64,000 nucleotides of DNA. Source: Thuidium tamariscinum. Taxonomy: Eukaryota > Streptophyta > Bryopsida > Hypnales > Thuidiaceae. A model generated the notes under the pieces. That model did no database searches. It had not been told where the DNA came from and saw nothing but the letters and a program-made list of their open reading frames with translations. Positions 5,482 to 58,452 of this stretch are shown piece after piece (within the stretch, counting starts at the first letter, position 1; each line of letters opens with the position of its first letter). The position numbers were made by a program, and so were the translations under genes. The stretch covers positions 20,718,053-20,782,052 of the forward strand of contig OX344750.2 of NCBI GenBank assembly GCA_947034885.2, written 5' to 3'.

Positions 5482-6427
5482 TTAACCCCTAAAGGACCAA
5501 ACTACTTTTTTTGGCAACATAGCGATTTTGGGTAGCTCACTAAGGATGGATTTTTTGTTTTTTTCTTTGAAATTTTCACACAACATGTGCCTAAGGAGTA
5601 CCTTTAAGACCCAACAATTTTCAGATTTTTGACTACATAGTTACAAAGTTATGACATGATAAGTTGATTTCTTTCTTCAACAGGCACCGAGGGGACCCAA
5701 AAAACTTCTTAAATTTTTATTTATTTTTTAAATTACAATATGAAATTGGTTTATTTGATTTCTATATGAGTAGAAAGCTTTCAATCATTTCATTTTGATT
5801 AATGAGTCAAAAATTATGACTATTTTAAGTTTGATGTAGTTTGCGGCTAGGTATAGAATCTCTACACTACAAAAAAAGTTTGAAATTCTTTGTTTAATTC
5901 AATTTTTAATGTTTTCGAAAAAAAAATATTGTGTGTACATTGTTTAACACAACATTACAACCATTGGAATTGTCTTCTCTTAACTCTATGAATAAATTGT
6001 TAATAATTTGGTATGTTGGCTAATTTTCTACTTCTTTCTATTTACTATTTTTTTCCTATATGTTGGACAATTCTAAATGATCTAAAAAATTTAAAGCATG
6101 TAGCCAACCTCACTTGAAGAATGAATCAAAAGAGTTACAATCATTTTGGACATTCTTCTATACAAATCCGCTCTTTTGAAGTGCAACTACACGGATTTTT
6201 GCAGTGGTAAAAAAAAGATTTCTGTCACTTCAAACACTAATATCTTGCAATATTTACAACGAAAATTGCTGGAATTTTTTCCACATCTTTTCAAACCTAT
6301 GTTCTAAGAGATCCTATGGTTATTTTTGTTTGAAAATTTTTTTTTCTTAGAATTTGGTAGTTATCTAAGAAATGATAGTTTTGAAGCAGTTTTGATGAAA
6401 ATATAGTAAAAAACCTTTAGGGGTTAA
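5482..6427 (+). mobile_element. Complete family A element, TTAA-bounded
   Basis: About 946 bases running from TTAACCCCTAAAGGACC to CCTTTAGGGGTTAA, so the two ends are inverted copies of about 14 bases including TTAA. Internal landmarks shared with the other copies are 'ggcaacatagc', 'ggagtacctttaagacccaacaatttt' (in parts), 'aagttatgacatgat' and the 3' block 'atatcttgcaat'. No ORF is present, so it is nonautonomous. TTAA followed by CCC is the target and terminus pattern of piggyBac-type elements; that class call is an inference. Confidence 0.7.
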
Positions 6428-7815
6428 TGAACTATAAATTTTGTTCTCATGTTGTGCAATATGTAGTGTGTTTAATTTAGTAATGTAAATTTGCTATATA
6501 TGCCAAATTTAATGAGGCAATTTTTGTCACTTAGGGTCAATCTTTTACACTAATGTTTAATTTTGAGTTATATATACTATGGGTATCATGGCTAAATTTT
6601 AGTATAACACCCTTCATTGCAAATTTTTTGATGTTTATTGTGTCCATTTTTGTCATCTACATGAAATAATTTATGTACATCTATATTCATCATACAATGA
6701 AAAATTTGAAATGAAGAAACTTTTATTTGTCAAAGGTAACTCATTAAAAAAAATTAATACTAAATTATGTTTTTACATAGTCTAATTTATATTTAATATA
6801 ATGTTTAGCATTTCATAGGTCCTATAGTAGCCCTACATATTATATAGATTTTTTTCCTTTGAATTAAATGGACCCTATCTTATAACTAATGTAGTTAAAA
6901 AAAAAAAAAGAGTGATCTCTTCAAGGGGTTTTGGGAGGACAAAATGGATATTGTGCAAGTTCCTGCATTCTTTGGAAATGTCCAAATTTTTTTAATTTTG
7001 TAGTGAAGAGAAAAAAACGCTTTAGTGTTATGAAATATCATTTTTATTTGAATTGGTGTCCAAGAAAAAAAATTAGAGCAGAAGAAGCTTTTTTCTATAT
7101 ATTGTGACTATAAAAAGAACCTTGAGTAACCTTTGAAAGAAAATATTGGAAGTTTATTATAAATAGATAGTAACTTCATATATATGAAAAGCTTTGAGTA
7201 ATTCCATTTGGGTTGTGTCGGTAGGAGTTGTGTTCAATATTAATTTCTATAGGCAATTAAACCATCAATGTTCTTGAAAAAGGGAACTTGTACAGGTTAT
7301 TTATGACTTCAAATTTTACATTTTTTTTGGAGGATATTGTTTTGGGAGGTTTAGATTCATATCTAGAACAATTTTATGAAATAATGAGATTAGTGTGGCA
7401 GTTTGATCTTAGAGGTCTTAGGATTTAACAACTTTCTTCAAATTGAAAAACACTTCTATTTAAAACAATTGTAGTGATTGAAAATTAAGTAATTTGAAAG
7501 AAATTGTATTCTCAAAATTTAAATTCACATCTTTATGAAATGGAAATAGAAATTGCTACTAAAAAGAATGAAAATTTTAAATCATTAAGGTTATAAGGCA
7601 GGAGGTCTGGAAACCAACTATGTGAAGGTTGAAACTAAATTTACAGGTGGTGAAACATCTTGAAATATTTTTTAATGATTTTTTCTTGAAAGATACTGTA
7701 GGTGGAAAGGCCATCTAACTCTAGTCATTTCAAATTTTATGAAGCTTTGTATAATTAATTGTGAATTTCTAAAGAGAATGTGGCATAGGGCTCAAAAATC
7801 GCCCACTCCATCAAA
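6428..7815. other. AT-rich tract with a family D fragment at its end
   Basis: No gene seen. Near 7670-7805 the sequence resembles 63450-63540, with the shared core 'ggcatagggctc(t/a)aaaatcgcc', so the end of this tract belongs to a dispersed repeat (here family D). Confidence 0.5.
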
Positions 7816-7893
7816 TGTATGTAGCTTGTACATTCCTGTAAAGATTAATCAAAATGTATGTAGCTTGTACATTCTTGTAAAGATTAATCAAAA
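7815..7893. repeat. Two-unit tandem repeat
   Basis: A unit of about 42 bases containing ATGTATGTAGCTTGTACATT and AAAGATTAATCAAA is present twice in tandem, with one base difference near the middle. Confidence 0.8.
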
Positions 7894-7959
7894 TGCATTG
7901 CTTGTAATGTGAGTTGCTAACTAAAATTGACTCCCAAACGGACCGACAACAATAAACCC

Positions 7960-8340
7960 ACATGTACTTGCGTAACAACAAAAGAAATAAAAGCAATACT
8001 GCAACAAACCAGATTTATAAAACAACTATTGCAATTCAAAAGCAATTCTACTTCAATTACAATTCAAAATTGAAATTAAACACAATGCAATAGCCATTCA
8101 AGAACAATGTAATATTAAAAACGTTATTTACAATTTCATTATTGCAATAGAATTGTTACCCTAAACAAATGTATACTTTTTATTTTTTAAATTGTTGCAA
8201 TTATTTCAAGCAAATAATATTGCAAACGCAAAATATTTTTCATTAATGCAATACAATTGAAACAATAAAGTCACAATAATGTAATCAAATGTAATTGTAG
8301 TCTGACTATTGCAATACTGTTGCAATTGTTTTTATTTTCC
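7960..8340. repeat. TTGCAAT-rich low-complexity island
   Basis: The words TTGCAAT/ATTGCAA and the related CAATTGCAAT recur about every 20-40 bases directly upstream of the subtilase ORF. A similar island lies at 50805-51310 downstream of the ARID-HMG gene. There is no regular period. It may be part of the subtilase 5' region or a degenerate satellite. Confidence 0.55.
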
Positions 8341-8342
8341 TG

Positions 8343-13800: not shown

Positions 13801-14665
13801 TTAACCCTTAGAGGACAAGATCCATTGCCATTTGGTCTAAAATAGTGCTTTAGGTGAACTTAGCAAATTTAGATTGTGTTCAAACATTAATCTTATATTT
13901 TTATTACTTACAATTACAAATTATGTATGACTAGGAGAAACTTCAATTGATTTTGTGAAAAATTATAATTGCTATCATTTTTGTTGCAACAATTAAAAGT
14001 AAATAAGTAAAAATAGTAGAAACAATCCAAATTATTTGAAATTTTTCTTAAGATGTACAAGTAGCAATGAAGATTAGTGTACAAAATTTGCAATCAATTA
14101 TAATATTTTTTAAACCCAAAACTACCACAACAAAGACCTTGAAGTCAAATTTGACTATCAAACCAAATTCAAGACTTTACTTAGTAGATGTTTGAAATTT
14201 TGATATTTTTGACTTGTAGAAAATTGAGCTTTCTACTTATTCTATTTTTTTTTAATTTTTGGGTGAAAACTACAAATTTTTGTGATTTTTTAAAGATAAA
14301 GGTTAAAAAAAATTATATCAATTATAATATATATTAGAATCATCTGAATTTTTTACTATTAATGAATATTAGATTGAAAAATTTAATTTTGTAATTTAAA
14401 TTGAAAATCCAATTTTGAAGGAAAAAACATGAAAGAAAAACACAGCATATTGCATTTTCAGGATTTTAATGCATGGAGCTTGCAATTGCAATAACTTCTT
14501 TAATTTTTGGATTTTTTCAAAATTTCAAGTTGAAGTAGAGAGAAAACTTATCAAATTCCATTTTCTTAATTTAAGTCAAATACCAAAAATGGTTATATTA
14601 AAAGTTAGAATCAAGGTTGACCAAGGTACATTCACTTTTTGGATGCATGCACCCTTGAGGGTTAA
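13801..14665 (+). mobile_element. Family B element, TTAA-bounded
   Basis: About 865 bases from TTAACCCTTAGAGGACAAG to CCCTTGAGGGTTAA. Its interior matches 56629-57496, sharing for example 'aaagaccttgaagtcaaatttg' and the 3' block around 'tttttggatgcat'. It has no usable ORF. The ends again show TTAA plus CCCTTA in inverted orientation, with an interior unrelated to family A. Confidence 0.7.
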
Positions 14666-15046: not shown

Positions 15047-15973
15047 TACCATTGATCCTTCGGGGGACAAATGCAAATTCGGGTAGGTACCTACGGGTTG
15101 AATTTTTGTCTCGATTTTTGGAAACTTTTTTTGGAGATAGAAAAATTATATATCTTCGTAGGGGTATAATTTTTTTTCAATTAGTGCCCGGGAACGAAAG
15201 TTATGCCCAAATAAGCTCAAAACAGGGGACGGCGGGCAGTTTGGGCAGCAAAGAAAACTTTTGAATTTTTTTTTGAATTTTTTCCCTTATAGATTATACT
15301 TTTTTCTATCTTGAAAGATTTGATTCATTTCATTTGGATTTGTTATGAGAAAATTATGGACATTCTTGTTTTTTGGGCAGTTAGAGCATCTTGTTCTTGG
15401 AAAAAAACCCTTCTAGGATTCATTTCTGAATGCAATTTCTTCCATTTTAAAAAAATAAAATAAAAATTTCATGGTTTAGATTACTTTCTAGAATAATCTC
15501 ACCATTAGGATTAGTGCATTTTAATTCCATCTAAAAGATATTAATATTTTAGATTTTCCTTCTATCTTGTACCTACTTCTACTTAACAATTTTTTTAAGT
15601 ATAAAAATTAAATTTTTTTGAAATTATTTTTTTCCCTAGGTTCTCAAATCAATTTTGCACTACAAAGATTTAAAGCTCAAAACTTTGTAGTGCAAAATTT
15701 TTTAAGTTAAAAATGTTCAAAGTCAAAAAATCCAGTCTCACAATGTGCTAAAAAACTTGTTTTTTCTACTTTAAACGCAAATATCTTGCAATTTGTAGGG
15801 TCAAAAATTTTGAAATTTATTCCACACTTTTTTATACTAGTAGGGTGTAAGATTCTATAGTTAGATGCGGAAAAAAACCACAATTTAAATGTTTTTTTAC
15901 TCTTTGGTGTGGAAATGGCAATTTTCGATGTTTTTTGGCAAAACATAGGGCTTGGTCCTTTAGGGGTTAAAAA
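15047..15973 (+). repeat. Diverged family A copy
   Basis: The right end is CCTTTAGGGGTTAA at about 15960-15973, preceded by the block 'aaatatcttgcaattt' and 'agattctatagtt', as in family A. The left end is diverged (CCTTCGGGGGACAAATG) and the TTAA is not clear there. 'gggtaggtacctac' near 15080 is shared with the copy at 26280. Confidence 0.6.
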
Positions 15974-16134: not shown

Positions 16135-16400
16135 TCCTTAAAGCAGGAACTTGAGACTGTGGAAATCATCTATTTTGGCACTGTGGGGATCTTTGGTTTA
16201 ATTTCTAAAGGCCCACACATTCAAAAAGTCAACCTTGAATCTAACTTTCAATACAATCATTTTTGGTATTTGACTTCAATTAAGAAAATAAAGCTTGACA
16301 AGTTTTCTTTGTACCTCAATTTGAATTTTTTGAAAAACTCAAAAAATGAAAGAATTATAGCACTTGCAAGCTTTAATGGTCTCTACTAAAGTATATTTTA
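16131..16400 (-). repeat. Truncated family B copy, inverted
   Basis: Starts TTAATCC and reads on the minus strand as the family B 3' part ('tgattgtattgaaagtta', then 'caaggttgac'). It abuts the preceding fragment at TTAA. Confidence 0.55.
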
Positions 16401-16410: not shown

Positions 16411-16990
16411 TTAACCCTAGAGCTCTCTAATGTCCAAATTCTGAATGATGTATAGATTGAAAATGAGATTTCTTTCTCATGACATCTTGGATGCAAGTCA
16501 TCCAAATTTATTTAGATAATTTATGGTGTTGTGGTCTTATCCAAGGGCAGATTTGGTGCTACTAAAGCACATACTTTTTTAAATTTACAAATGTAGAAGT
16601 ATGTCAAGTCATTGGCTTGCATTCACTCTACTTTAAACTTGGAATTGCAAAAATGAAGTCATAGAATCAAAGAATCAAAGAATTCTAAAAATCATTGTGT
16701 TTAGAGAACCTCATTTCAAATTTATTCCATCAATATTTACTCAAAAAATGACAATATTCTCTATATAATTGAATTTAAAAAGAATTTTGAATTTTTCCTT
16801 TCAAAATTTATAGAAAAATATTGGTGATAGTAGATAGTAGTGAATCTAACCATATAGATGGAATGTAAAACTCAAACTCTACAACTTTTATTTGCATTTC
16901 AATTCCAAAATATTCTTCCAAATGATACCTTATGATGATTTTTCCAAAATCATTAGTTTTGGAGATGAGTCTAGATGCTTAGGGATTAAT
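16411..16990 (-). mobile_element. Short family C element, TTAA-bounded
   Basis: About 580 bases from TTAACCCTAGAGC to GCTTAGGGATTAA. It matches the family C copy at 21283-22323 in reverse orientation: the 'tttggagatgagtctaga' end here is the reverse complement of its left end. It lacks the middle part of the longer copy and has no ORF. Confidence 0.65.
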
Positions 16991-18199: not shown

Positions 18200-20044
18200 C
18201 TACTCTCCATGGACTAAATCTCGTCTTCCGTACGTCAATCCCAAGCATCGGCTCAGTGGGAGCGACCTTCTCTGCAAACGTTTCGTCCACGCCTCCACTC
18301 TCGAGCGTGGCGGCACCACATTTCCAAAGGGGATGTCACCAAGGACATCACATATTGTGGAGAACTTGGGCCTCACCTCAGGATCATCGTTCCAACACTT
18401 CGAGATGAGCCCTGCCAAGTCTGGATGTAGTCCAGCAGGGAGCTCCGGCCTGCGCTTCGCCATCACGTCCCTCTCATTCAAATGCTCGTGAGGCGCATTA
18501 CCGGTCAGGATTTCGTAGCATGTCATAGCAAAGCTGTACACATCCGTCTTCAGTAGCTGCTCATTTCTGAGCTCGCCTCTCTTTGCTCTGAGGACCTCGG
18601 GAGCTCGCCACAGATTGGTGCCTGCACGGTGTGCAACATGTGGGTTTCCAATACGATGGGATGCCCCGAAATCAGTGATTTTCACATCAAACCGTCCACA
18701 GTGGTCGTGGACCAACACATTCGCTGCCTTCATGTCCCTGTGGACGACATTCTTTGAGTGCAGGAAGTTCAAACCCAGAGCTATCTTGAGGCACAGCTCC
18801 CGAGCTTCAGCGCCGCTGAATAGAGGGGACGATGTCCGACCTTTCTTGCGCAAGAGCTGTGAGCGAGAATTGATCAGTTTTCGGAGATCCATGTCCATGC
18901 GCTCCATCATGATCCAGCCGCCATTGTCATCAACAGAAACACCCATCAACCGAGCAACATGTGGATGCTGAAGCTTCATAAGAAACTCCACTTCCTCTTT
19001 GAAACTCAGAGACAACCACTTGAATCTTTTCACTGCAAATGCGCATCCCAGCCAATTCACTTCGTACACTTCGTTGGTGCCTCCAGCCCCAATGCGTCGC
19101 CTCCACTCTACATCGGCTGGGTCTATGGACAGATGGATCGGCAACGTTTCTAACATACTTGCAATCTCCACGCATTTATTTCCTTCATCGTCTTTATGGG
19201 TGGTCCACTGTAACGCACAATCCTTGGTCACGGTCGTTTGCTTTCGGGCTTGATCACATGCAGCACGGATAGTAGCCAATCTGTCACATATTGCAGAAAA
19301 CCCAGGCCTCTTCTCTGGGTTCTCATCCGAGCAATCAAGAATAAGCTCCGCCAGGTCGTCACCAATGCCAGGAGGAAGCTCTAACCTAGCCGCTGCTTCT
19401 CTAACTCTCGGTTCCAACTTTCTTCCTGATAGAATTGCAGTGCAAAGTACAGAGAAATCATAAACATCTGCATCTTTTGACGAGTTTCTGGCATGATCTG
19501 AGAACGCAAAACCGCCGATCTTTATGTCAAGCTGGCCATCAGTATGCACATTCATCAAAATAATGTCACCAGTCAGGGATCCGTGTACAACTTCTCTGCC
19601 ATGTAAGAACCTCATACCCAAAGCAATCTTCATTGCAATGTCAATAACTTCGCAGCCATCAAAGGGAGGAGCCCTCGATGCCCAGTGGCGATCATTCATA
19701 ACTTTTAGCAGGTTAGTTTCCATGCGCTCCATCACTATGGACACCATTCTTTGCCGAAGTTCCACGTTGAATCCCAAAAGTTGCACTACGTGCGGATGTG
19801 GAAGCCTCATTAAGATCTCCAGTTCCTTGGGGTAAGGTTTGAAAACTTGAAAGTCAGAAATGGCGAGTTCTTTGACCGCAACCTCGCAACCGAGCCAAGT
19901 GCCACTTCTCACCTCGCTAGAGATTCCAATGCCAATAATTTTCCCTATATGCAAGTCAGATGATGAAATCCTGAGATGCTCTGGAATGCTCCGGAATCTA
20001 GTCCGGTGTGCAGCGTCTGCCACGTGCGGTACCGTCAAGTCCAT
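18200..20044 (-). CDS. Tandem pseudokinase-kinase protein, copy 1
   Basis: Single open frame of 614 residues from the Met at 20044; an in-frame upstream Met at 20197 would add 51 residues but is not supported by the second copy. The first domain (about 30-259) is kinase-like and keeps the VAVK lysine (about 58), but has HGS in place of HRD (about 154-156) and GGF in place of DFG (177-179), so it should be catalytically dead. The second domain (about 315-565) has a glycine loop (IGAGGTNEV), AVK lysine (339), HRD with AAN (435-440), DFG (458-460), APE (481-483) and the late conserved Arg (558), so it should be active. The sequence style is plant TKL-type Ser/Thr kinase. No membrane segment or leucine-rich repeats are seen, so it is probably cytosolic. 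The arrangement resembles pseudokinase-kinase pairs where the first domain controls the second; that role is inferred. Confidence 0.9.
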   Translation of the reverse strand: MDLTVPHVADAAHRTRFRSIPEHLRISSSDLHIGKIIGIGISSEVRSGTWLGCEVAVKELAISDFQVFKPYPKELEILMRLPHPHVVQLLGFNVELRQRMVSIVMERMETNLLKVMNDRHWASRAPPFDGCEVIDIAMKIALGMRFLHGREVVHGSLTGDIILMNVHTDGQLDIKIGGFAFSDHARNSSKDADVYDFSVLCTAILSGRKLEPRVREAAARLELPPGIGDDLAELILDCSDENPEKRPGFSAICDRLATIRAACDQARKQTTVTKDCALQWTTHKDDEGNKCVEIASMLETLPIHLSIDPADVEWRRRIGAGGTNEVYEVNWLGCAFAVKRFKWLSLSFKEEVEFLMKLQHPHVARLMGVSVDDNGGWIMMERMDMDLRKLINSRSQLLRKKGRTSSPLFSGAEARELCLKIALGLNFLHSKNVVHRDMKAANVLVHDHCGRFDVKITDFGASHRIGNPHVAHRAGTNLWRAPEVLRAKRGELRNEQLLKTDVYSFAMTCYEILTGNAPHEHLNERDVMAKRRPELPAGLHPDLAGLISKCWNDDPEVRPKFSTICDVLGDIPFGNVVPPRSRVEAWTKRLQRRSLPLSRCLGLTYGRRDLVHGE

Positions 20045-20197
20045 GGAAAGGAAGAAGAAGAACGACCCTAAGGCTCGCATAAATAAAGAGCCTGTTGGGG
20101 TTCTTGTACTCGCAAGTGAAAGAGGAACTGTACTGATCACTGTGATGCGATTCAAATTATCCAACACTGTAGAAACATAAACATATAGAGCTTGCAA

Positions 20198-21260
20198 TTC
20201 ATGATTTCTAACCCGGTCTACTAACCCAGGAATTCAAGAAAGAGAAATCTTCGGTTGCGTTTTGAGAACCATCACCTGCGTGACAATCACAAAGCTACAT
20301 CAGCCATCTTGTCTGAAAGTAATTGCAAACCCTAGCGAATATCTCTAACTACACCAAATTGCAAGTTTGTAACTCTAACCCAAAGATGATCCTCGTAGAT
20401 TCGTGCCCTAAATGGACACAATCTCAACATGAAATCCAGATTCAATTTTTGATACACCAACTGTCAACACTTTAGAAATTCATTAATTTAGTCATATGGC
20501 GTTACAAAACTACACAATAACTCAGTAAGATGCATTAGAACCCTCTTTCAATTGCTGAAATGATCCAAACAATTTGAGACAAGTTAATGCCTTGAATCCC
20601 CCTCTTTCCAATTTGCACGTACATACCTGGAGGAATTATAGTGCTCGCCATCAATTCTTGGTGAACACGAAGGGTTATAAATCCTTCACTTGTCCAATGC
20701 ATGCATGCTACAATCTTGCCCCATGGTCTACCTTACTACAATGATTCCTAACCCTAACTCTGTGCTAAATATGGGAGGTCAAAAGGTACAAGTAGTAAAT
20801 CCTTGACTGAGTTTTCGAAAGAGATGGAGAATATATTTTAAGAGGAGAATCACGCAGCCATTTCTCCTTTGTGCGAGCTCAACTCTCATCCTCTTCACTA
20901 AGTTAACTTAGAGACAGCTTGAGTCTGTTAGCAAGAGCTAGCTACTGACCCTGCACTTTCAAACTGAAGCCACAAGACGAATATCGGAAACTCCCATATC
21001 TCCGAAATACTCTGAAGCACGTTGCTTTGTTGCATCCACTCCGTCCGCTGTGCTCACAAGAAACTAAAAACGCATCCCCTGCTGATCGATCGCCTCGCAA
21101 GGATTCTGCTGGAGTGCGACTGCCCTCTAATAACTTAAGCTTCGAGTGCTTTGTTTCTGTACAGTACACAGTTGCGATCACTCCCCCCTGTTTTGAGTGC
21201 AGCACAATATGCGCCACGCCATTGCAGCCCACTACAAAATCTTCAAATCTCATTATTCCT
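20198..21260 (-). promoter_or_regulatory. Duplicated upstream region of kinase copy 1
   Basis: About 1 kb 5' of the kinase that is closely matched at 30300-31390 upstream of copy 2, so 5' UTR and promoter were copied with the gene. A telomere-like box (TTTAGGGTTTAGGG on the plus strand, so AAACCCTAAACCC in gene orientation) lies at about 21265-21278 at its far edge. Such telo boxes occur in plant promoters, but function here is not shown. Confidence 0.45.
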
Positions 21261-21282
21261 TTGTTTAGGGTTTAGGGTTTTG

Positions 21283-22323
21283 TTAACCCCTAAGCGTCCA
21301 GACTCATCTCCAGAATTCATGATTTTGGAAAAACCATCATAAAGTACAATATGGAAGAATATTTTGGAATTGAGATGCAAATAAAAGTTGTAGAGTTTGA
21401 GTTATAGATTCCATCCATGTGGTTGGATTCACCATTGCTATCACCAATATTTTTCTATAAATTTTAAAGGGAAAATTGAAAATGCCTTATAAATTCAATT
21501 CCAAGCAAAATATTGTCATTTCTGTGGTAAATTTTATTAGAATGGATTTGAAATGAGGTTCTCTTGACATGGTGATTTTTTGAAATTTTTGTGTTCTTTG
21601 ATTCTATGATCTTATTTTTGCAATTTTGGGTTTGAACTAGAGTCAATGCAATTTTGGCTTGAATCGACCACTTGACATACTTCTACATTTGTTATTTGGA
21701 AAAATATGTTCTACATTTGTTTTGTTTTGAAAAATATATGTATTCTAGTAACACCAAATTTAACCCTTGGATAGGACAACAACTTGATGAAGTATCTTTA
21801 AAAATTAGGATGACTTTCATCATAGTTATAATGAAAAAGAAATCCAATTTCAATCTATATATTGTCAAAAAATTGATTGTTGAAGCGCTTGAAGTATAAA
21901 CTAAAAAAATGAAGTTGAATATGGGTTTTTTTTGGGTTTTGAAAGCTTGACTTGATGTTTGACTATTTCACAATAGATGTATTTCTTTAGGGATTAATGT
22001 TGTAGCCCTTCTCTAATGTAATAATCTCTCCTAAGTCCAAAGGTTCTAAGTTCCAAGGGTGTTAAGAATATCTTTGTTGAAGCATGCCATACTCTCTTAG
22101 CAAATAGTTTTGCGTGCCCAATTGTTTTTCTATATTCCACCAATAGGAGATTTCTAAATTTGTCAATATAAGCCACAAAGCATGTAATGGAAGTCAAACT
22201 AATATAGAAGATCTTCCCTTTCCACACAAATTTTAAAAATAAACAGTTGCATTTCTTTTCCATACAAAAGATTTTCTATCATCCGTGGGACACTAAACGT
22301 TGGTGTTGATGTTTAAGGGTTAA
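21283..22323 (+). mobile_element. Family C element, TTAA-bounded
   Basis: About 1041 bases from TTAACCCCTAAGCGTCC to GTTTAAGGGTTAA. The left end block 'cagactcatctcc' recurs near 31690 ('aggctcatctc') and inverted at 16970. The interior has no significant ORF. It starts at the edge of the duplicated kinase block. Confidence 0.7.
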
Positions 22324-25936: not shown

Positions 25937-27184
25937 TTAAACCCTAAAGGACCAAATCATTAGGAGGGATTTGAGGGCTGCAAAGGGCCGTTTCGGGATT
26001 GTTCCCAAAACAGGGTCTGGGAACGGTTGGCCGCTGGTCAGCATTTAAAAAAAGAAAAGAAAAATTAAAAAATGGGGGGGGTCCTGAAATATGAAAAAAA
26101 GTCAAAAAAAAAAATTCGGAAAAAAAGAAGTCAATGATGTGGCAGTTGCTCGACCACGTCGGATTCCTGCAGAACTGCGTTCCCGCGGCTGTTTTCGCGA
26201 TTTCGGACTGTGGGAACTCACAGGCTCCAGAGCCCTCAAATCCCTCCTAATGAGTGTTTTTTTGGCAATGTAGTGATTTTGGGTAGGTACCTATGAATGG
26301 AATTTTTATTTTTATTCTTTGAGATTTTCACGCAATATTTCCCCAAGGTGTAGCTTTAAGGATCAACAATTTTCATGATTTTTGACTACATGGTTCAAAA
26401 GTTATTGTATGATATGTAGTTTTCATTGCTTAGTGGGTAGCTTGGGTAGTTAAAATAAATTCTTCAAAAATTATTATTTTTTAAAATAAAAACTTGAAAT
26501 TGGTTATTTAGATTTAATATACATGGAAAGATTTGAATCATTTCATTTTGATTAATGAGATAAAAGTTATGAGAGTTTAAGTTTGTAGGTAGTTTATTGG
26601 AAGTTATGTAATGTCTACTCTAAAATAAACTTTAAAATCCATTATTTAATTCAATTTTTAATATTTTAAAAAACAACAACATTGGATGTAGATTGTTTAT
26701 TACAACAATACAACCACTCGGATTGTCATTTTTCAATTCAATAAATAAATTGTTAACAATTTAGTCTTTTAATTAAATTGCTCTCTACTTCTTTCTACTT
26801 ACTATTTCTTTTTGTACATGTTGAACAATTTCAAAAGATTTGAAAATTTTCAAGCATGTAGCTAACTTGAATTAAAGAACGAATACAAAGAGTTACAACC
26901 ATTTTGGACATTTTTTCATACAAATGTGGCCTTCTAAAGTGCAATTGCCCGAATTCTTGTAGTGGTGAAAAAAGTTATTTTGTAACTTCAAACACACATA
27001 TCTTGCAATCTACACAACATAAATTTTTGAAATTTTTTCTACATCTTTTCAACTAGTGCACTAAAAGATCCTATAGTTACATTATTCCAAATATGGTTTT
27101 CTTTCCAAACTTGTTAGTTGTCCTGCAAATGAAAATTGTAGAACGGTTTTGGTGAAAGCATAGTAAAAAATCTTTAAGGGTTAA
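25937..27184 (+). mobile_element. Family A element carrying a nested MITE
   Basis: Starts TTAAACCCTAAAGGACC and ends TCTTTAAGGGTTAA. Without the 295-base nested element at 25958-26252 the length is about 950, like other family A copies, and the interior is recognisable ('ggcaatgtagtgattttggg', 'caccaaaag'-free central part, 'tgcaatctacac' 3' block). It sits inside the kinase copy 2 duplicate and splits its 3' end. Confidence 0.75.
25958..26252. mobile_element. MITE with perfect 22-bp inverted ends
   Basis: The left end CATTAGGAGGGATTTGAGGG plus CT is matched exactly, inverted, by the right end. The interior is much richer in G and C than its surroundings and holds a poly-A stretch. No target duplication is clear. 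It lies just inside the left end of a family A copy. Confidence 0.8.
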
Positions 27185-28219: not shown

Positions 28220-30188
28220 TTACCGTCTTCTTCTAAGTCTTTGCCGTGTTTCCCGTCTTCGCACTTCCTCACAACGGTCCGGTCTCGGAGGCTCTCTCTC
28301 GTGGACGAGATCTCTTGCGTCAAATTTATATGTCAATCCAAAGCATTGGCCGAATGAGAGCGACTTCCTTCGCACCCGTTCCGTCCATGCCTCCACTCTA
28401 GAGCGTGGCGGCACCACAGGGTTTCCAAAGTGGATGCCACCAAGGACATCACATATCGTGGAGAACTTGGGCCTCACCTCAAGGATCATCGTTCCAACAC
28501 TTCGAGATGAGTCCCGCCAACTTCGGATGTACTCCAGCAGGGAGCTTCGGCCTGCGCTTCGCCATCACGTCCCTCTCATTCAAATGCTCGTGAGGTGCAT
28601 TACCGGTCAGAATTTCGTAGCATGTCATAGCAAAACTGTACACATCCGTCTTCAGTAGCTGCTCATTTCTGAGCTCGCCTCTCTTCGCCCTTAGGACCTC
28701 GGGAGCTCGCCACAGATTCGTGCCGACACGGTGCGCAACATGTGGGTTTCCAATACGATGGGATGCTCCAAAATCTGTGATTTTCACATCAAACCGTCCA
28801 CAGTGGTCGTGGACCAACACATTCCCTGCCTTCATGTCCCTGTGGACGACATTCTTTGAGTGCAGGAAGTTCAAACCCAGAGCTATCTTGAGGGACAGCT
28901 CCCGAGCTTCAGCGCCGCTGAATAGAGGGGACGATGTCCGACCTTTCTTGCGCAAGAGCTGTGAGCGAGAATTGATCAGTTTTCGGAGATCCATGTCCAT
29001 GCGCTCCATCATGATCCAGCCGCCATTGTCATCAATAGAAACACCCATCAACCGAGCAATGTGTGGATGCTGAAGCTTCATAAGAAACTCCACTTCCTCT
29101 TTGAAACTCAGAGACAACCACTTGAATCTTTTCACTGCAAATGCGCATCCCAGCCAATTCACTTCGTACACTTCGTTGTTGCCTCCGGCTCCAATGCGTC
29201 GCCTCCACTCTACATCGGCAGGGTTTATGGACAGATGGATCGGCAACGTTTCTAACATACTTGCAAACTCCACGCATTTATTTCCTTGATCGTCTTTATG
29301 GGTGGTCCAATGTAGCGCACAATCTTCGGTCACGGTCGTTTGCTTTCGGGCTTGATCACATGCAGCACGGATAGTAGCCAATCTATTACATATTGCAGAA
29401 AATCCAGGCCTGCTCTTTGGGTTCTCATCTGCGCATTTGAGGATAAGCTCCGCCAGGTCTCTATCAATGCCAGGAGGAAGCTCTAACCTAGCCGCTGCTT
29501 CTCTAACTCTCCGTTCCAAGTTTTCAGTGCAGCAAGCGCAGCAAGGCAACAAGTACAAGCGCTTTCTTCCTGATAGAAGTGCAGTGCAAAGTAAAGAGAA
29601 ATCATAAACATCTGCAGCTTTTGACGAGTTTCTGGCATGATCTGAGAACGCAAAACCGCCGATCTTTATGTCAAGCTGGCCATCGGTATGCACATTCATC
29701 AAAATAATGTTACCAGTCAGGGATCCGTGTACAACTTTTCTGCCATGCAAGAACCTCATACCCAAAGCAATCTTCATTGCGATGTCAATAACTTCGCAGC
29801 CATCAAAGAGAGGAGCCCTCGATGCCCAGTGGCGATCATTCATAACATTTAGCAGGTTAGTTTCCATGCGCTCCATCACTATGGACACCTTTCTTTGCCG
29901 AGAGTCCACGTTGAAACCCAGAAGTTGCACTACGTGCGGATGTGGAAGCCTCATTAAGATCTCCAGTTCCTTGGGGTAAGGTTTGAACACTTGGAAGTCA
30001 GAAATGGCGAGTTCTTTGACCGCAACCTCGCAACCGAGCCAAGTGCCACTTTTCACCTCGCTAGAGATTCCGAAGCCAATGAGATTTCCTATATGCAAGT
30101 CAGATGATGAAATCCTGAGATGCTCTGGAATGCTTCGGAATCTAGTTCGGCGTGTAGCCTGTGCCACGTGCGGCACCATCAAGTCCAT
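28220..30188 (-). pseudogene. Tandem pseudokinase-kinase protein, copy 2, frameshifted
   Basis: Close duplicate of the gene at 18200-20044, beginning with the same MDL...VPHVA start at 30188. The first domain again has HGS and GGF in place of HRD and DFG; the second keeps IGAGGNNEV, AVK, HRDMKAGN and DFG. Two differences matter. A 42-base in-frame insertion near 29524-29565 adds about 14 residues (RLYLLPCCACCTEN) to the end of the pseudokinase domain. An extra A in the plus strand at 28481-28482 turns the codon after DDP into a stop at 28479-28481, so the 569-residue product loses the last kinase helices, the conserved Arg and the tail. The lost part continues in another frame to about 28220. 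It may be a pseudogene, or a truncated protein whose pseudokinase part still works. Confidence 0.8.
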
Positions 30189-30299
30189 GGAAAGGAAGAA
30201 GAAGAAGAACGACCCTAAGGCTGGCGTGAATAACTTAGAGCCTGTTGGGGTTCTTGTACTCGCAAGTGAAGAGGAACTGCACCGATCACTGTGATACGA

Positions 30300-31400
30300 T
30301 TCAAATTATCCAATACTGTAGAAACATAAACAAATAGAGCTTGCAATTCGTGATTCCTAACTCGGTCTACTAACTCAGGAATTCAAGAAAGAGAAATCTT
30401 CGGTTGCGTTTTGAGAACCATCACCTGCGTGACCATCACAAAGCTCCATCAGACACCTTGTCTGAATCAAAGTAATAGCAAACCCTAGCGAATATCTCTA
30501 ACTACACCAGATTGCAAGTTTGCAACTCTAACCCAAAGATGATCCTTGTAGATTCTTGTGCACAATTCCAACATGAAATCCAGATTCAATTTTTGATACA
30601 CCAATAATCAACACTTTAGAAATTCATTAATTGAGTCATATGGCGTTACAAAACTACACAATAACTCAGTAAGATGCATTAGAACCCTCTTTCAATTGCT
30701 GAAATGATTCAAACAATTTGAAACAAGTAAATGGCTTAAATCCTCCTCATGCTAATGAGGACGCGTACATACCTTGAGGAATAGTGCTTGCCACCAATTC
30801 TTGGTGAACACGAAGGGTTATAAATCCTTCACTTGTCCAATGCATGCATGCTACAATCTTGCCCCATGGTCTACCTTTCTACAATGATTCCTAACCCCAA
30901 TTCTGTGCTAAATATGGGAGGTCAAATTAAAAGTACAGCTAGGAAATCCTTGACTGAGTTTTTGAAAGAGAGGGAGAATCTATAAGAGGAGAACCAAGAA
31001 GCCATTTCTCCTTTGTGCGAGCTCATCCTCTTCACTAAGGTAACTTAGAGACAGCTTGAGTCTGTCAGCAAGAGCTACTGACCCTACCGACTTTCAAACT
31101 GAAGCCACAAGACGAATATCGGAAACTCTCGTATCTCCGAAATACTCTACAGCAAGTTGCTGCGTTGCATCCACTCCGTCCACTGTGCTCACAGGAAACT
31201 AAAAATGCGTCGCCACTCTGCCTTCGCAAGGATTCAGAAAGCAGGAGAGTTCCTATCGTCTGCTGGCTCTGCTAGAGTGCGGTTGCCCACTAATATTAGC
31301 TTCGCATGCTTGGTTACTGTACCGACAGTCGCCCCCCGTTTCGAGTGCAGCACAGGCGCCACGAAATTGCAGCCCACTACAAATCTTCAAATGTCAAATT
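30300..31400 (-). promoter_or_regulatory. Duplicated upstream region of kinase copy 2
   Basis: Matches 20198-21260 with small indels, including 'atgcatgctacaatcttgcccc' in part and the cluster near 'gaagccacaagacgaatatcgg'. It presumably holds the 5' UTR and promoter of copy 2. A frame at 31157-31555 runs here but has no conserved counterpart in copy 1, so I do not call it a gene. Confidence 0.45.
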
Positions 31401-31679
31401 TGGCAAACCTTCATAACATTCAGTACTGTAGCATTGGCTGGCTTTGCCTTCTCGCAGCAGTGGAGGGTGTTGAGTATTTGATACTCCAAGAGTGTTTTAT
31501 AAGTAACTACTCAAATAAGTGGACATGTGGAGGATGGAGATGGAGAGGCTGGTGAGTGTGGAATATGCTACACTCTTCACTGTAAAGAGAAGGCAGAGCC
31601 ACGACATGCTAGTGAATCTTATGTTGGGTTTTTTTTTCAACATACCCATTATTGGTATGTTGTTTTTTTCCAACATACC

Positions 31680-32280
31680 CCCAAGCGTGTAGGCTCATCT
31701 CACTAGAATGGATGCTTTTGAAAAAATTACTCCGTATTATAAAGTGCTATATGGAAGAGTATTTTGGGATCGAGATGCAAAAAAAATTGAGGACTTGGAG
31801 TTTTAAATTCCATCCATACGTGTCTGTCACTCATGTAAGCTCAAGTCAAATAACCAAGGCATAGCAACATGAAGTGCCATGATTGATTTTTGTTGTGACT
31901 TACATTTACAAGTTTAAAAATCTTCTATTGGTGGGATATAGAAAAACAATTGGGTAAGCCAAACCATTTGTCACGAAAATATGGCATGCCTTGATGGAGA
32001 TGCTTTTAAGAATCTTGGATCATATAACCCTTGGACCTGGGAGAGGTTATTGCTTTTATTAGAGAAGGGTTACAACATTAATCTCTAAAGAAATATATCT
32101 AATTTTTAGAGATACTTTATGAAGTTGTTGTCTTATCCAAGGGAGGATTTGTTGTGACTAGAATACATATTTTTCTAAAAGTTCAAATGTGGAAGTTTGT
32201 CAATTAGTGGACTTGCATTGAGTCTAGTTCAAACATGGGATTGCTAAAATGAGGACACAAAAATTGAGAAAAATCACATG
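31680..32280 (+). repeat. Truncated family C copy
   Basis: Begins 'acccccaagcgtgtaggctcatctc', matching the left end of the copy at 21283, and continues with 'tatggaagagtattttgggat', as at 21350. The TTAA at the left end is degraded and the right end is lost next to an inverted family A copy. Confidence 0.6.
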
Positions 32281-32317
32281 CTCACACTTTCTAATATAAA
32301 TTTTAAATTTTAGGGAC

Positions 32318-33083
32318 ATTTTTTTGATACATGTAACTATAGGATCTTGTAGTATGATAGTTTGAGAAGACGTGGAAAAAATTTAGAAATTTCTTCCATG
32401 TCTATTGTAAGATATTAGCATTTGAATTGGCATAAATACTTTTTTTGGCCTTGCAAAAAATTAGGCAGCTCCACTTCACAAAGTGACATTTGTATGAAAA
32501 AATGTCCAAAACGATTGTGCTTCTTTGCTGATTCATTCTTCAAGGCAAGCTGGTTACATGCTTGAAAAATTTGAGATCATTTCTAAAAAGTAAGTAGAAA
32601 GGAGTAGAAAATGATTCAAATTACTAAATTGTTAACTATTTATTTATAAAATTGAAAAATGTCCATCCCAATGGTTTTAATGTTGTAATAAACAATCTTC
32701 ACCTAATGTTTTTATTTTTTTCAATAATAGTGAAAATTTAGTTAAATAAAAGACCTCAAAGTTTACTATAGTGTTGAGGATCCATAATTGCTTCCAAACT
32801 AAAACTCTTCATGATTCTCTTTTCATTAATCGAAATAGAATGATTCAAAACTTACCTTGTATATATAAATCTTATAAAATCAATTTCAATGTTTTAATTC
32901 TTGGACAATAACTCTTTTTAACCATGTATTTAGAAAGTATGAAAATTGTTGGGCCTTAAAGTTGCAAATTCCTTGGATACATGTTGTCAAAAAATTTCAA
33001 AGGAAATTTTTTTTTTTTTCATAATAAGCTACTTCAAATCACTATGTTGCCCAAAAAATGCCATTTGGTCCTTTAGGGGTTAA
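32318..33083 (-). repeat. Truncated family A copy, inverted
   Basis: Reads on the minus strand from TTAACCCCTAAAGGACC at 33083 through 'ggcaacatagtg' and 'aagaatgaat' to 'gatcctatagttac' near 32340. The outermost 3' end is missing where it meets the family C fragment. Confidence 0.65.
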
Positions 33084-51551: not shown

Positions 51552-52502
51552 TTAACCCCTAAAGTTTTAAATTGCATTTTTTGGCAACTTAGCAATTTGG
51601 GGCAGCTAATTACAAATGGAGTTTTCATTTTTTTTCTTTAAAATTTTCAAAAAACATTTCCCCAAGGAGTAGCTTTAAGGCCCAACAATTTTCATAACTT
51701 TTGACTACACGGTTAAAAAGTTATGGCATGATATGTTGTTTTCTTTACTTGGCAAGCAATGCAGGTAGCTAAAAATACTTCTTTAAAATTTATTTTTTTA
51801 AGAAATAAAAATTTGAAATTGGTTTATTAAATTTATATTTGTGTGGAAAACTTTTGAATCATTCCATTTTGATTAATGAGATGGAAGTTGTGAGGAGTTT
51901 TATTTTGCAGTTTTTGCAAGTAGTTACAGAATCACTACTTTACAAAAAAAATTGAAATCTTTTATTTAATTCAATTTTTAATGTTTTTGAAAAAAAAATT
52001 CAAACATTGGGTGAAGATTGTTTATTACAATATTGCAACCATTGAAATTGGTATTTTTCATTTATATAAATAAATTGTTCACAGTTTAGTATTTTGAATC
52101 ATTTTCTACATCTTTCTATTTACTATTTTTTCCCTATATATTGTATAATAACAAATGATTTGAAATTTTTGAGCATTTAGGCAACTTGCACTGAAAAGTA
52201 AATTCAAAGTGAGTAACCACCATCTTGAACATTCTTTTATAAAAATGTAACCTTGTGAAGTGCAACTGCCCGGGTTTTTGCACGGATAAAAAAGGATTTT
52301 CATCAATTCAAATGTTAATATCTTGCAATCTACATGGTGGGAATTTTTGAAATGTTTCCACATCTTTTGAAACCACCTTGCTACAAGACCCTATGGGTAC
52401 ATCTGTCAAAGAAAAGTTTTTCCTAAAATTTTGCACTTATATTAAAAATTGCAGTTTGGAAGCATTTTTGTGAAAACATAGTCAAAAGCCTTTAGGGATT
52501 TA
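51552..52502 (+). mobile_element. Complete family A element
   Basis: About 951 bases from TTAACCCCTAAAG to CCTTTAGGGATTTA (the right TTAA is mutated to TTTA). It has the full series of family A blocks: 'ggcaacttagcaattt', 'aaggagtagctttaaggccc', 'aaaaagttatggcatgat', 'atcttgcaatctacatgg' and 'gtgaaaacatagtc'. There is no ORF. Confidence 0.75.
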
Positions 52503-54414: not shown

Positions 54415-55137
54415 TTAATCCCTAAAGCCTTGAGCTTTGTTTTTTGGCAACATAAATTTCTTGTGCAGCTCACTACAAATGGAGTTTCTATTTTTTTTTC
54501 TTTGAAATTTTTACACAATATGTGACCAAGGAGTAGCTTTAAGGCCCAATAATTTTAATAACTTTTGACTTTGTAGTTAAAAAGTTATGGCATGATATGT
54601 TGTTTTCTTTACTTGGAGGGTAGTCCAAGTAGCTGAAAAAACTTCTTTAAAATTTTATTTTTTTTAAAAGTGAAATTTCAAATTGATTCTTTAGGGTTTT
54701 ACAAACATGGGAAGCTTTGTTTCATGCCATTTGGATCAAGGGGTCAAAAGTTATGAGGAATTTTAGTTTGTGGGTAGGTATGGAATCTTTGGTAACTTTT
54801 GACTCATTAATCCAAATGGCATGAAACAAAGCTTCCCATGTGTGCAAAAACCTAAAGAATCAATTTGAAATTTCACTTTTGAGAAAAAATAAATTTTAAG
54901 AAGTTTTTTTAGCTGCTTGGACTACCCTATGAGTAAAGAAAACAACATATTATAGCATCATGCCATAACTTTTTAATCACAAAGTCAAAAGTTATGAAAA
55001 TTGTTGGGCCATAAAGCTACTCCTTAGGCACATCTTGTGTAAATATTTCAAAGAAAAGAAATAGAAACTCCATTCGTAGTGAATTGCCCAAAAAACTTAT
55101 ATTGCCAAAAAATGCAGCTTAGGGCTTTAGGGGTTAA
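54415..55137. mobile_element. Fold-back derivative of family A
   Basis: About 723 bases made of two inverted copies of the family A left half. It begins TTAATCCCTAAAGCC and ends GGGCTTTAGGGGTTAA. 'ggagtagctttaaggccca' in the left arm is mirrored near 55015, and 'atgccatttggatcaa' / 'ttaatccaaatggcat' meet near 54730-54820, with a centre of about 60 bases. The family A right half is absent. Confidence 0.8.
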
Positions 55138-55492: not shown

Positions 55493-56437
55493 TTAACCCT
55501 AAAGTACCAAACTGCATTTTTTCGGCAACATAGCAATTTTGGGCAACTCACTACGAATGGAGTTTTTATTTTTTTTTCTTTGAATTTTTCACAAAATATA
55601 TGTCCAAGGAGTAGCTTTAAGGCCCAACAATGTTCATAACTTTTGACTACATAGTGAAAAAGTTATTGTATGATATGTAGTTTTCTCTACTCGGTGGGCA
55701 ACCTGGGCAACAAAAACAATTCTTCAAAAATCATTTTCTCTTAATTTTCAAATTTTTTCTTTAGATTTTTATCTACTTGGAAAGCTTTGAATCATTCCAT
55801 CTTGATTAATGAGATGAAAGTTATAGGAGTTTTAGTTTGTAGGTAGTTTATGGGTACTCATAGAATCTCTACACTAAAATAAACTTTGAAGTCATTCATT
55901 TTACTCAATTTTTAATATTTTTGAATAAAAACAAAAAATTGGGTGTATATTCTTTATTACAACATTACAACCATTGGAATTGGCATTTTTCAATCCCATA
56001 AAAAAATAGTTAACAATTTAGTACTTTGGATCATTTTCTACTTCTTCCTACTTATTTATTTTTTCCTACATCTTGTACAATTCCAAATTATTTGAAAATT
56101 TTCAAGCATGTAGCCAAATTGAATTGAAGAATGAATCTAAAGAGTTACAAAAAATTTGGATATTTTTTTATATAAATGTGAGCTACTGAAGTGCAACTAC
56201 TCGGATTTTCACAGGGTCAAAAAATGGTTCTTTGACAATTCAAACACTAATATCTTGCAATCTACACAGTGGAAATTTCTGAATTCTTTTCCACATCTTC
56301 TTGAACAAGTGTGATACAAGATCCTATGGTTACAAATGTTCAAAGATTTTTTTTTTTTGAAATTTTGCACTTGCTTTAGAAATGGCAGTTTTAGATCGTT
56401 TTTGGTGAAAACATAGTCAAAAACCTTTAGGGATTAA
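55493..56437 (+). mobile_element. Complete family A element
   Basis: About 945 bases from TTAACCCTAAAGTACC to CCTTTAGGGATTAA. Internal blocks follow the same order as at 5482 and 51552 and no ORF is present. Together with 54415-55137 it forms a cluster of three family A relatives within 5 kb. Confidence 0.75.
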
Positions 56438-56628
56438 AACATGGGTTGATGTGTCTACTCTCCAAGTCCATTGCCATGATGATGAAGGATTGCTTAGATT
56501 GTTGTAATAGGTGGGATACTAACAACAATGGGAGGATCTTGTAGCTAGGTGGCGAAATTGGATGAATGATATTATTGGATAGTTCTACTTTATACTAAGT
56601 TGCAATTGTTGGAAGTTACCAAACCAAC

Positions 56629-57496
56629 TTAATTCCTAAAGGATTAGACTAATTCACTACAAATTGATCAAACATGATATTTGAACTAAATGTAGCCTAT
56701 TAGATTATATTCAACCATCAATCCTATATTTTAATTACTTTAAAGTATGAATTGTATAGCTCTCTAGGAAATTTCAATTTGTATTGTTAAAATTTATAAT
56801 TGTTACCAATTTTCTTGCTAAAACTGATAATAAATAAGAAAAAATAGCAAAAATAATTTAAATTATTTGAAGTTTTTGCAAAAGATATAAGTAGCAATAG
56901 AAATTAGTGAGAGATTTTTCAATCGATTATTTATTTTCCACACCCAAAAGAAGCATAGCAAAGACCTTGAAGTCAAATTTGGCTATCTAATCAAGTTTAT
57001 CCTTTTATTTAAGTGATGTATAAAATTTTGATGTTTTGGCTACTGAAAAAATGTATTTTCTATATATTTGGTTTTTATTCAAAAAATTGATGGAAAAATG
57101 AATTATTGTAATTTTTTGAAGATAAATGTGGAAATAAAAAACATATCAATTGTAATAAATATTGAAATAATATGGAATTTTTAACATTAATAAAAGTTAG
57201 AACTACAAACTTAATTTCTTCATTAAAATTGAAAATCAGTTTCAAAACAAAAAAATTTGAATGAATAATAGAGCACATTGAGCTTTTTGGATTTTAACAG
57301 ATTGAGCTTACAACTACTAATAATAATTCTTTCAATTTTTGAATTTTTTCAAAATTTCAAGATGAAGTAGAAAGAAGACTTGTTAAGCTTCATTTTTTTG
57401 GTTTACATCAAATACCAAAAATGATTACATTGAAAGTTATAATGAAGATTGACCAAAGTGCATCCACTTTTTGGATGCATAGATGTTTAAAGGTGA
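56629..57496 (+). mobile_element. Family B element, second copy
   Basis: Starts TTAATTCCTAAAGGATTAG and follows 13801-14665 block by block ('aaagaccttgaagtcaaatttggcta', 'ataccaaaaatg.tta'). Its right end is diverged ('tgtttaaaggtg'), so the boundary there is approximate. Confidence 0.6.
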
Positions 57497-57688
57497 AAAG
57501 TGTGGGATAAACAAACAATCCACTCTTAAAAAAATAATCATCCAATGTTTTGACTCAATGTTTTCAAGTGATTAACTATATAATTATATATTGTTGTGCT
57601 TGTCAAAATCCACTTCCCACTTGAGGACTAGGAGCTAAAGTTTGAGGAAAACACACGACGAAACTCCTTGGAGCACCAAAACTAAGGT

Positions 57689-58212
57689 TGGGGTGAACTG
57701 GCTCCCATGTTTGGCCACTCCAAGTAATTCCAAGGGTGCAAGTAAAACAAAAAGCCCCCTATTTTGTGCTTATCTAATTTATCTTGTACACATTAATTAG
57801 CTAATTGGGGGGCCTCTGATTGCAAATATGAATTCAGAATTTGCAAAAAGTAAAAAATTCCAGCATTCTTCCAAGTAGCCGGGATCAATTCACCCCTATT
57901 CAAAACTGAGGTCTAAAGGAATTGGATGTTGTGATTCTCTTCTACTATTCTTTGTGGTTAGGGTGAATTGGTCCCCTTGCTCAGCCACTCCAAATAATTC
58001 TAGGGGTGCAAGTAAAACAAAAAGCCCCCTATTTTGTGCTTGACTAAATTACTTGGTACAACTCCTGCAGCTAATTGGGGGCCTCGGACTGCAATTATGA
58101 ATTCAGAATTTGCAAAAAAGATTATTTGTAAAAAAATAAAAAATTCTAGCGTTTTCCTAGCATCAGTCTTTTTGTTGTACCCCCCTCTGACACCCCTATT
58201 TCAAACCGGGGT
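57689..58212. repeat. Two-copy direct repeat of about 225-255 bases
   Basis: 57689-57915 and 57955-58212 are copies sharing 'ggtgcaagtaaaacaaaaag', 'ccccctattttgtgctt' and 'atgaattcagaatttgcaaa'. Both end in a CACCCCTATT(T)CAAAAC-like word. The second copy has a small A-rich insertion. Confidence 0.85.
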
Positions 58213-58222
58213 TTCTTTTATG

Positions 58223-58452
58223 ATTAACCCTAAAGCGCTTCGAAGTCCATATTCTGGACGATGAACAGAGGGCTTCAAGGCTCTATTTCATCCAATTAAC
58301 TTCTCATTTATCAAATGTAACACTTGAATCTAGAAAAGACAACCTTCCATAATGACCAAATTCATTCAATTCTGGTAAATGATATATCTGTACAAAGCTA
58401 TAAGCGAAAATGCGCAAAAATCCAAAAAAGGATTGAGACGTTCCAGGGTTAA
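58223..58452. mobile_element. Short TTAA-bounded element
   Basis: About 230 bases from TTAACCCTAAAGCGCTTCG to GACGTTCCAGGGTTAA. The left end resembles family C (CCCTAAGCGTCC). The interior is noncoding. It is the shortest element here with both TTAA-CCC ends. Confidence 0.6.

What the first reader, a model, noticed from the sequence alone, without database searches (positions are those of the whole stretch)
5482..58452. Several unrelated repeat families share TTAA-CCC(C/T)TA inverted ends: candidate piggyBac-type elements in a plant
Family A (5482-6427, 51552-52502, 55493-56437 and others), family B (13801-14665, 56629-57496), family C (16411-16990, 21283-22323) and a 230-base element (58223-58452) have different interiors. 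All start TTAA+CCC(C/T)TA and most end with the inverted form. PiggyBac elements insert at TTAA and their termini begin CCC, so TTAA here may be the duplicated target and CCCTAAAGG the true terminus. All copies are ORF-less, implying an autonomous source elsewhere. PiggyBac is common in animals and, as far as I know, rare or little described in land plants.
Basis: partly seen in the sequence, partly recalled or inferred. Interest (0 to 1): 0.75.

Follow-up and report, generated by a model that had tools for sequence, protein, structure and literature searches.

The report
PiggyBac transposons in a moss genome
Short TTAA-flanked repeats in this moss genome are non-autonomous piggyBac-type transposons, and the same genome carries full-length, intact and apparently recently mobile piggyBac elements, a transposon family best known from animals and thinly documented in land plants.

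Summary
The finding holds. The window carries at least 13 copies (about 16-17% of its bases) of elements without long reading frames, bounded by TTAA and CCC-type inverted ends. The host is a moss: a spliced window gene is 88% identical to Ceratodon purpureus, 80% to Sphagnum. In its 363-Mb genome TTAACCCYTAAAGG occurs 9,543 times, the reversed control 6. Pfam's piggyBac domain gives 116 matches among 116 scored of 659 candidates. PB1 (5,096 bp) has 11 copies of one length, each with TTAA on both sides and unrelated flanks; 9 compared over 3,984 bp differ from a reference by 0 or 1 base. PB2 (about 5.15 kb) and PB3 (7.9 kb) share terminal sequence with the family A/A' repeats, so they or relatives are the predicted autonomous partners. 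Of three nested insertions examined, two have uninterrupted relatives with one TTAA; in the third, one of seven relatives has TTAA. The PB3 catalytic region models like T. ni piggyBac. In a tree the moss transposases and unnamed proteins separate from all 15 animal rows. A real member of a known superfamily in an under-documented host; movement is inferred, not shown.

The parts
5482..6427 (+). A1, full-length family A element, perfect 14-bp ends TTAACCCCTAAAGG
   Evidence: its first 124 bp are 73% and its last 58 bp 79% identical to the two ends of PB3
51552..52502 (+). A2, family A, right end decayed to TTTA
55493..56437 (+). A3, family A, TTAA at both ends
1..212 (+). Family A copy cut by the window start
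   Evidence: matches 5-212
26253..27184 (+). Family A, left terminus lost
32285..33083 (-). Family A, decayed at its low-coordinate side
54415..55137 (.). Fold-back element built of inverted family A termini
   Evidence: aligns with L011 end to end in both orientations
15048..15970 (-). Sub-family A' element (86% to L009), one end intact; also serves as an uninterrupted relative for the L021 insertion site near 15710-15835
13801..14665 (+). B1, family B, TTAA at both ends
   Evidence: 24 of 39 other genome rows start exactly at its TTAA
56629..57496 (+). B2, family B, decayed ends
16228..16372 (-). Family B fragment
16411..16989 (+). C1, family C
21283..22323 (-). C2: family C in roughly 21283-21875; remainder is another TTAA-ended piece
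31677..32252 (.). Fragments matching C1/C2
   Evidence: 31677-31817 and 31893-32252
58224..58452 (+). D, 229-bp element; young genome copies 93-96% identical, ends CCCTGAAGCG / CCCTGAAACG in most

Best explanation
The repeats are non-autonomous members of the piggyBac superfamily (MITE-like, about 0.23-0.95 kb) in a moss genome, moved in trans by piggyBac transposases encoded by full-length elements in the same genome. The transposase recognises the CCC... ends, cuts the element out through TTAA-looped hairpins and joins it to another TTAA, which becomes the 4-bp duplication. Shown: the ends; TTAA on both sides; uninterrupted relatives with a single TTAA for two insertions; open transposase frames with the three conserved aspartates; the predicted fold; shared termini between A/A' repeats and full-length PB3/PB2. 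Inferred: cross-mobilisation, hairpin chemistry, seamless excision, recent activity (from near-identical copies). Ends fall in two classes: CCC(C/T)TAAAGG (A, A', B; with PB3) and CCCTGAARCG / CCCCTAAGCG (C, D; with PB1). For B, C and D the pairing rests on end motifs alone.
For: PF13843: 116 matches of 116 scored (659 candidates), best E 5.7e-80, 0 of 14 control genomes. PB1 protein: that Pfam family only; piggyBat 2.5e-27 and T. ni piggyBac 8.1e-23 by sequence. PB3 model: 6x67 piggyBac E 2.7e-26, TM 0.65/0.74. PB1: 11 of 11 copies have TTAA at both ends and one length; 7 of 9 identical and 2 with one change over 3,984 bp. PB3 and PB2 share termini with A and A'. Nested insertions with single-TTAA relatives: L017 and L021. 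D: 24 of 27 aligned copies have TTAA on both sides. 32 of 41 listed CCCCTAAAGGACCAA ends are preceded by exact TTAA (hand comparison).
Against: TTAA is a palindrome, so flank data alone cannot exclude a 2-bp TA duplication within TTAA. In L021 the right flank differs from its relatives by a 4-base gap two to three bases past the junction; relative L002 reads TTGAAAG there. In L026 six of seven relatives lack TTAA at the site. A and PB3 share only 58-61 bp at the right end, seen for two window copies. Shared termini are 67-79% identical, so PB2/PB3 are relatives of the source rather than shown sources. No empty site was found for any window copy. 3 of 27 D copies lack TTAA on one side.
Confidence: 0.95

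Rival explanations
1. The repeats are MITEs of another superfamily with a TTAA-like site (Kolobok or Sola3, recalled as TTAA-duplicating; Tc1/mariner with TA; PIF/Harbinger with TWA), and the piggyBac elements are unrelated neighbours.
For: For B, C and D only end motifs link them to piggyBac. TA and TTAA duplications cannot be told apart by flanks alone.
Against: Full-length elements with family A / A' termini encode piggyBac transposase. Most D copies share their first ten end bases with PB1. A 3-bp duplication does not fit the symmetric TTAA...TTAA ends. I made no search for Kolobok, Sola, mariner or Harbinger transposases.
Confidence: 0.04
2. The piggyBac sequences are contamination from an animal or protist in the moss assembly.
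For: The 15 relatives of PB1 that carry an organism name, among 120 listed, are all animal.
Against: The elements sit on contigs of 24-54 Mb; C2, which carries the moss APGM gene of this window, also carries four PB1 copies and one PB2 copy. One PB1 copy abuts a family A end at a shared TTAA (L042). Moss transposases separate from all 15 animal rows in the tree.
Confidence: 0.01

Closest known systems
piggyBac of Trichoplusia ni (PDB 6x67) and piggyBat of Myotis (9c0f)
   Same: DDD transposase with the same fold and conserved motifs; TTAA site; ends beginning CCC: T. ni TTAACCCTAGAAAG (sequence seen in a passage of PMC7351741) against TTAACCCTGAAACG and TTAACCCCTAAAGG here.
   Different: Only about 20-30% protein identity; moss proteins are 877-959 residues or codons long with long N-terminal extensions (T. 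ni and piggyBat chains are 594 and 578 residues); elements are 5.1-7.9 kb against 2,472 bp for T. ni (abstract in listing).
Animal piggyBac-derived MITEs (for example the coral MITEs of PMC2872659; title and abstract start in a listing only)
   Same: Short non-autonomous elements with piggyBac ends (same kind, partly recalled).
   Different: Land-plant host; most family A/A' copies here are about 0.92-0.95 kb, long for MITEs.
Plant repeats labelled PiggyBac in surveys
   Same: A review lists PiggyBac among seven angiosperm MITE superfamilies defined by ends and duplication (PMC10004981, one passage); the C-fern table lists 1,230 PiggyBac pieces, 122,417 bp (PMC6890710, passages); Stipa has one piece of 75 bp (PMC8319324, one passage).
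   Different: Those passages show no transposase and no full-length element. The 207-genome plant MITE survey, which included four bryophytes, has neither 'piggyBac' nor 'TTAA' in the held main text (PMC12550479).
Unnamed environmental proteins P0121-P0135
   Same: Closest relatives of PB1 (up to 68%) and of PB2/PB3 (up to 56%); group with the moss rows.
   Different: Host unknown; elements and ends not seen.

Membership tests
piggyBac superfamily (full-length elements) | Transposase with the piggyBac DDE_Tnp_1_7 domain | tested here: met
piggyBac superfamily (full-length elements) | Three conserved catalytic aspartates (DDD) | tested here: met
   PB1 aligned with 6x67 at all three; D198, D404 invariant and D287 nearly invariant in a 28-row alignment led by PB3. 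That these are the catalytic triad is recalled.
piggyBac superfamily (full-length elements) | Cysteine-rich C-terminal domain | tested here: met
   C..C...C..C...C...C...H pattern found by regular expression in 7 of 12 frames that were not empty or cut short of it by inspection of PB1, PB2, L029, L030, L031, L034, L035, L036 (8 frames match; PB3, L032, L037, L038, L039 do not match the pattern as written). Pfam's zinc-finger model was not matched in PB1.
piggyBac superfamily | TTAA duplicated on insertion | tested here: met
   11 of 11 PB1 copies; 24 of 27 D copies; single TTAA in relatives for L017 and L021, not clean for L026
piggyBac superfamily | Inverted ends beginning CCC | tested here: met
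piggyBac superfamily | Seamless excision | not testable with these tools
   needs an assay or resequenced accessions
piggyBac non-autonomous element: families A and A' | Termini shared with an autonomous piggyBac element | tested here: met
   A with PB3 (217-219 bp left, 58-61 bp right); A' with PB2
piggyBac non-autonomous element: families B, C, D | Termini shared with an autonomous piggyBac element | tested here: inconclusive
   end motifs only; no blastn match of window B, C or D to transposase loci
PIF/Harbinger (Tourist-like) | 3-bp TWA duplication | tested here: not met
   symmetric TTAA on both sides
Kolobok / Sola3 (TTAA duplication, recalled) | Own transposase carried by elements with these ends | not tested
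   no search made; the partner elements found encode piggyBac transposase

The most novel reading that the evidence does not exclude
Mosses hold their own deep branch of the piggyBac superfamily, with at least three transposase lineages kept over long times and one family (PB1) mobile so recently that it probably still moves. It feeds an amplification of thousands of TTAA elements and would give land plants a native, seamlessly excising transposon.
Probability: 0.5. Interest if true: 0.75.

Novelty: new member of a known kind. Interest (0 to 1): 0.6.

Why it matters
PiggyBac is a leading footprint-free transposon tool and the plant work I saw uses the insect element (PMC10905368, PMC10794571, passages). 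A native, apparently young land-plant piggyBac with open transposase frames and thousands of non-autonomous copies would give a plant enzyme and ends to test, markers for recent insertions in moss populations, and a case for asking how piggyBac spread across eukaryotes. It also suggests that plant repeat surveys may mis-sort or miss this superfamily in bryophytes.

Tried and rejected
Host naming with the window's tandem kinase failed: the best relatives are unnamed. A spliced APGM protein placed the host among mosses only; my early guess of Sphagnum (note) was wrong. Transposase relics in the window: tblastn of PB1 gave no hit at E 1. The pattern TTAACCCCTAAAGGACCAA did not complete, so the TTAA-preceded fraction rests on a hand comparison of the listed places in the first 4.25 Mb of C1 (32 of 41).

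Empty-site screen: 57 start/end pairs, many not real elements; 6 queries had a match crossing the join. I examined 3 (L017, L021, L026). Dropped: L022 1019-1404 and L026 1892-2205, whose starts lie inside another element, and L023 479-1409, whose only crossing match was 86 bp at 77% in its own flank; none of the three was examined further. Tree: of 14 moss sequences prepared, 7 were used; L035-L038 were left out as near-copies, L032, L033 and L039 as partial, empty or short. Of 120 listed relatives, 31 best-ranked (P0121-P0151) plus 12 further named ones were used. The tree is a quick one (SH-aLRT only), and the moss label needs 5 changes on it, so the moss rows are not one clade among the unnamed ones.

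Literature: searches returned no paper. Searches were seen as listings; passages were read from nine papers, no paper in full. In PMC10619864, the one moss genome paper that the word search raised, 'piggybac' is only 'expression piggybacking'. Subscription papers and bioRxiv preprints are not in the library, so earlier reports may exist.
Full report
WHAT WAS CLAIMED.

OBSERVATION. The ends are real and beyond chance: 11 TTAACCC(C/T)TA in the window, 0.33 expected. Families A, B, C and D are at the stated places with the corrections given under the observation check. With further copies they cover 10,657 of 64,000 bases in 16 segments (about 0.45 kb of this, the second part of C2, is doubtful). 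None of 13 copies checked holds a stop-to-stop frame above 94 codons. In the whole genome (363.2 Mb, 19 contigs; window = C2:20718053-20782052) TTAACCCYTAAAGG has 9,543 exact hits, its reversed control 6. If each element shows two such ends, that is up to about 4,800 elements, or some 4.4 Mb at 0.93 kb each; this is a rough inference that leaves out copies with changed ends. DNA searches found 505 (B), 2,366 (C) and 1,643 (D) candidate places, of which only 40 each were scored. For B, 24 of 39 other rows start exactly at the TTAA; C and D matches begin at or within several bases of it in nearly all rows.

HOST. An archaeal-type phosphoglycerate mutase gene (minus strand, 39441 to about 43212), spliced by eye from five exons, is 88% identical to Ceratodon purpureus, 80% to Sphagnum balticum and 74% to Marchantia paleacea. 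The host is a moss, probably not Sphagnum; the species is unknown to me.

TRANSPOSASE. Pfam PF13843 gives 116 matches among 116 scored of 659 candidates, best E 5.7e-80; none in the tool's 14 control genomes. The 959-aa PB1 protein has that one Pfam family, matches piggyBat (2.5e-27) and T. ni piggyBac (8.1e-23) among solved structures, and aligns with the latter at the three acidic positions that I recall as its catalytic triad. A model of PB3 residues 381-928 (28-row alignment, mean pLDDT 86.9, pTM 0.81) has as best PDB matches 6x67 piggyBac (E 2.7e-26, TM 0.65/0.74) and 9c0f piggyBat; Tn5 follows at 1.6e-06. A regular expression for a cysteine-rich C-terminus matches PB1, PB2, L029, L030, L031 and L034-L036, but not PB3 as written, nor the shorter frames.

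FULL-LENGTH ELEMENTS (names mine). PB1, 5,096 bp: of nine copies compared over 3,984 bp, seven are identical and two differ by one base, up to a sharp edge TTAA|CCCTGAAACGCCGGGC. The other end, GCCGGCGTTTAGGGG|TTAA, lies where a constant length predicts it in 11 of 11 copies, and the sequence outside the TTAA is unrelated between copies (lengths worked out by hand from the coordinates; two of the 11 were read at their ends only). PB2: two copies, 97.4% identical over 5.18 kb, ends TTAA-CCCCTAAATGCCC and TTAA-CCCCTAAGTTCCC, open frames of 877 and 774 codons; against A' repeats one end matches over up to about 300 bp at 68-72%, the other over about 100 bp at up to 79%. PB3, 7,932 bp, C3:18797427-18805358: open frame of 928 codons, ends TTAA-CCCCTAAAGGACTAGC and TTAA-CCCCTACAGTTCC; its left 217-219 bp are 77-79% identical to L015, L019 and L026, and 73% over 125 bp to the window copy 5482-6427; its right end matches only over 58-61 bp, at 79% and 75%, in two window copies. 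So autonomous relatives with the predicted ends exist for A and A'. At 67-79% they are kin of the source, not shown to be the source.

TARGET SITE. Three nested insertions with uninterrupted relatives were examined. L017 533-1471: the joined flanks read GAAGTTAAAGAAAACC and the relative L028 reads GAAGTTAAATAAAACC, one TTAA and no gap. L021 462-1231, inside an A' element: L020, L009 and the window near 15.71-15.84 kb read one TTAA at the site, L002 reads TTGAAAG, and L021 has four more bases shortly past the junction. L026 950-1684, an insert with PB1-type ends in a family A element: of seven relatives, four read TTCAA, one TCCAA, one TTCTAA and one TTAATTAA, so a TTAA there must have arisen by mutation before the insertion. 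Of 27 aligned D copies 24 have TTAA on both sides. In the first 4.25 Mb of C1, 32 of 41 CCCCTAAAGGACCAA ends are preceded by exact TTAA (by hand). Because TTAA is a palindrome these data alone cannot exclude a TA duplication within a TTAA preference; the transposase, whose studied relative leaves a TTAA duplication (PMC7351741, passages), settles it as far as homology can.

END CLASSES. A, A' and B begin CCC(C/T)TAAAGG like PB3 (B copies). D ends CCCTGAAGCG and CCCTGAAACG in most copies, the latter equal to the first ten end bases of PB1. C has CCCCTAAGCGTCCAG and, in L103, CCCTGAAGCGCTTTGAC, close to D. I infer two mobilisation groups; only A/A' has long shared termini behind it.

EVOLUTION. 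Of 120 listed relatives of PB1, the 15 with an organism name are animal, 28-35% identical; the closest, up to 68%, are unnamed. In a quick tree of 50 rows the 7 moss transposases and 18 unnamed proteins lie on one side of a branch with SH-aLRT 100, and the 15 animal rows with 10 unnamed ones on the other. The moss rows fall into at least three lineages (PB1-like, PB2/PB3-like, L034-like; about 30-42% identity between them), each with unnamed relatives. This fits long residence in mosses or their kin, but the hosts of the unnamed proteins are unknown and repeated arrival is not excluded.

LITERATURE. [quoted passage not shown] reviews list it among plant superfamilies (PMC10794571, PMC10004981, passages). 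Repeat tables give 1,230 short pieces in C-fern (PMC6890710) and one 75-bp piece in Stipa (PMC8319324). The 207-genome plant MITE survey has neither word in its held main text (PMC12550479). In the listings of searches I saw no paper on an autonomous or active piggyBac native to a land plant. Presence in plants has thus been asserted before; a description of intact elements was not found by these searches.

VERDICT. The piggyBac membership of the full-length elements, and the piggyBac-type identity of family A/A', are well supported; B, C and D follow by their ends. Present mobility is inferred from near-identity and open frames. A known superfamily in an under-documented host, and a rich case.

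Noticed in passing
window 18200-20933 and 28479-30926: A tandem pair of duplicated genes coding for double-kinase-domain proteins, 91-97% identical in DNA over many stretches. The best relatives (57-59%) are unnamed, and the best named plant hit is only 32% (Spirodela).
   Followed up: partly
L042 left flank, L085, L089 left flank, L099: Elements of different families abut at one shared TTAA (PB1 next to a family A end; two D copies head to head; D next to a PB1-like end; D next to a B end), as if terminal TTAAs were preferred targets.
   Followed up: partly
window 54415-55137 and L011 483-1186: Fold-back elements made of two inverted family A termini.
   Followed up: no
L055 5938-7158: Diverged direct repeats lie between the PB3 frame and its right end and account for part of its extra length.
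   Followed up: no
L034, L035, L036 (C8 and C1): A further transposase lineage (911-974 codon frames, the three loci 99.7-99.9% identical over 4.1 kb); two of the copies lie about 7 kb apart in opposite orientation on C8. Its ends were not located.
   Followed up: no
window 21250-21282: Telomere-like TTTAGGG text (tttagggtttagggttttg) directly beside the C2 insertion.
   Followed up: no
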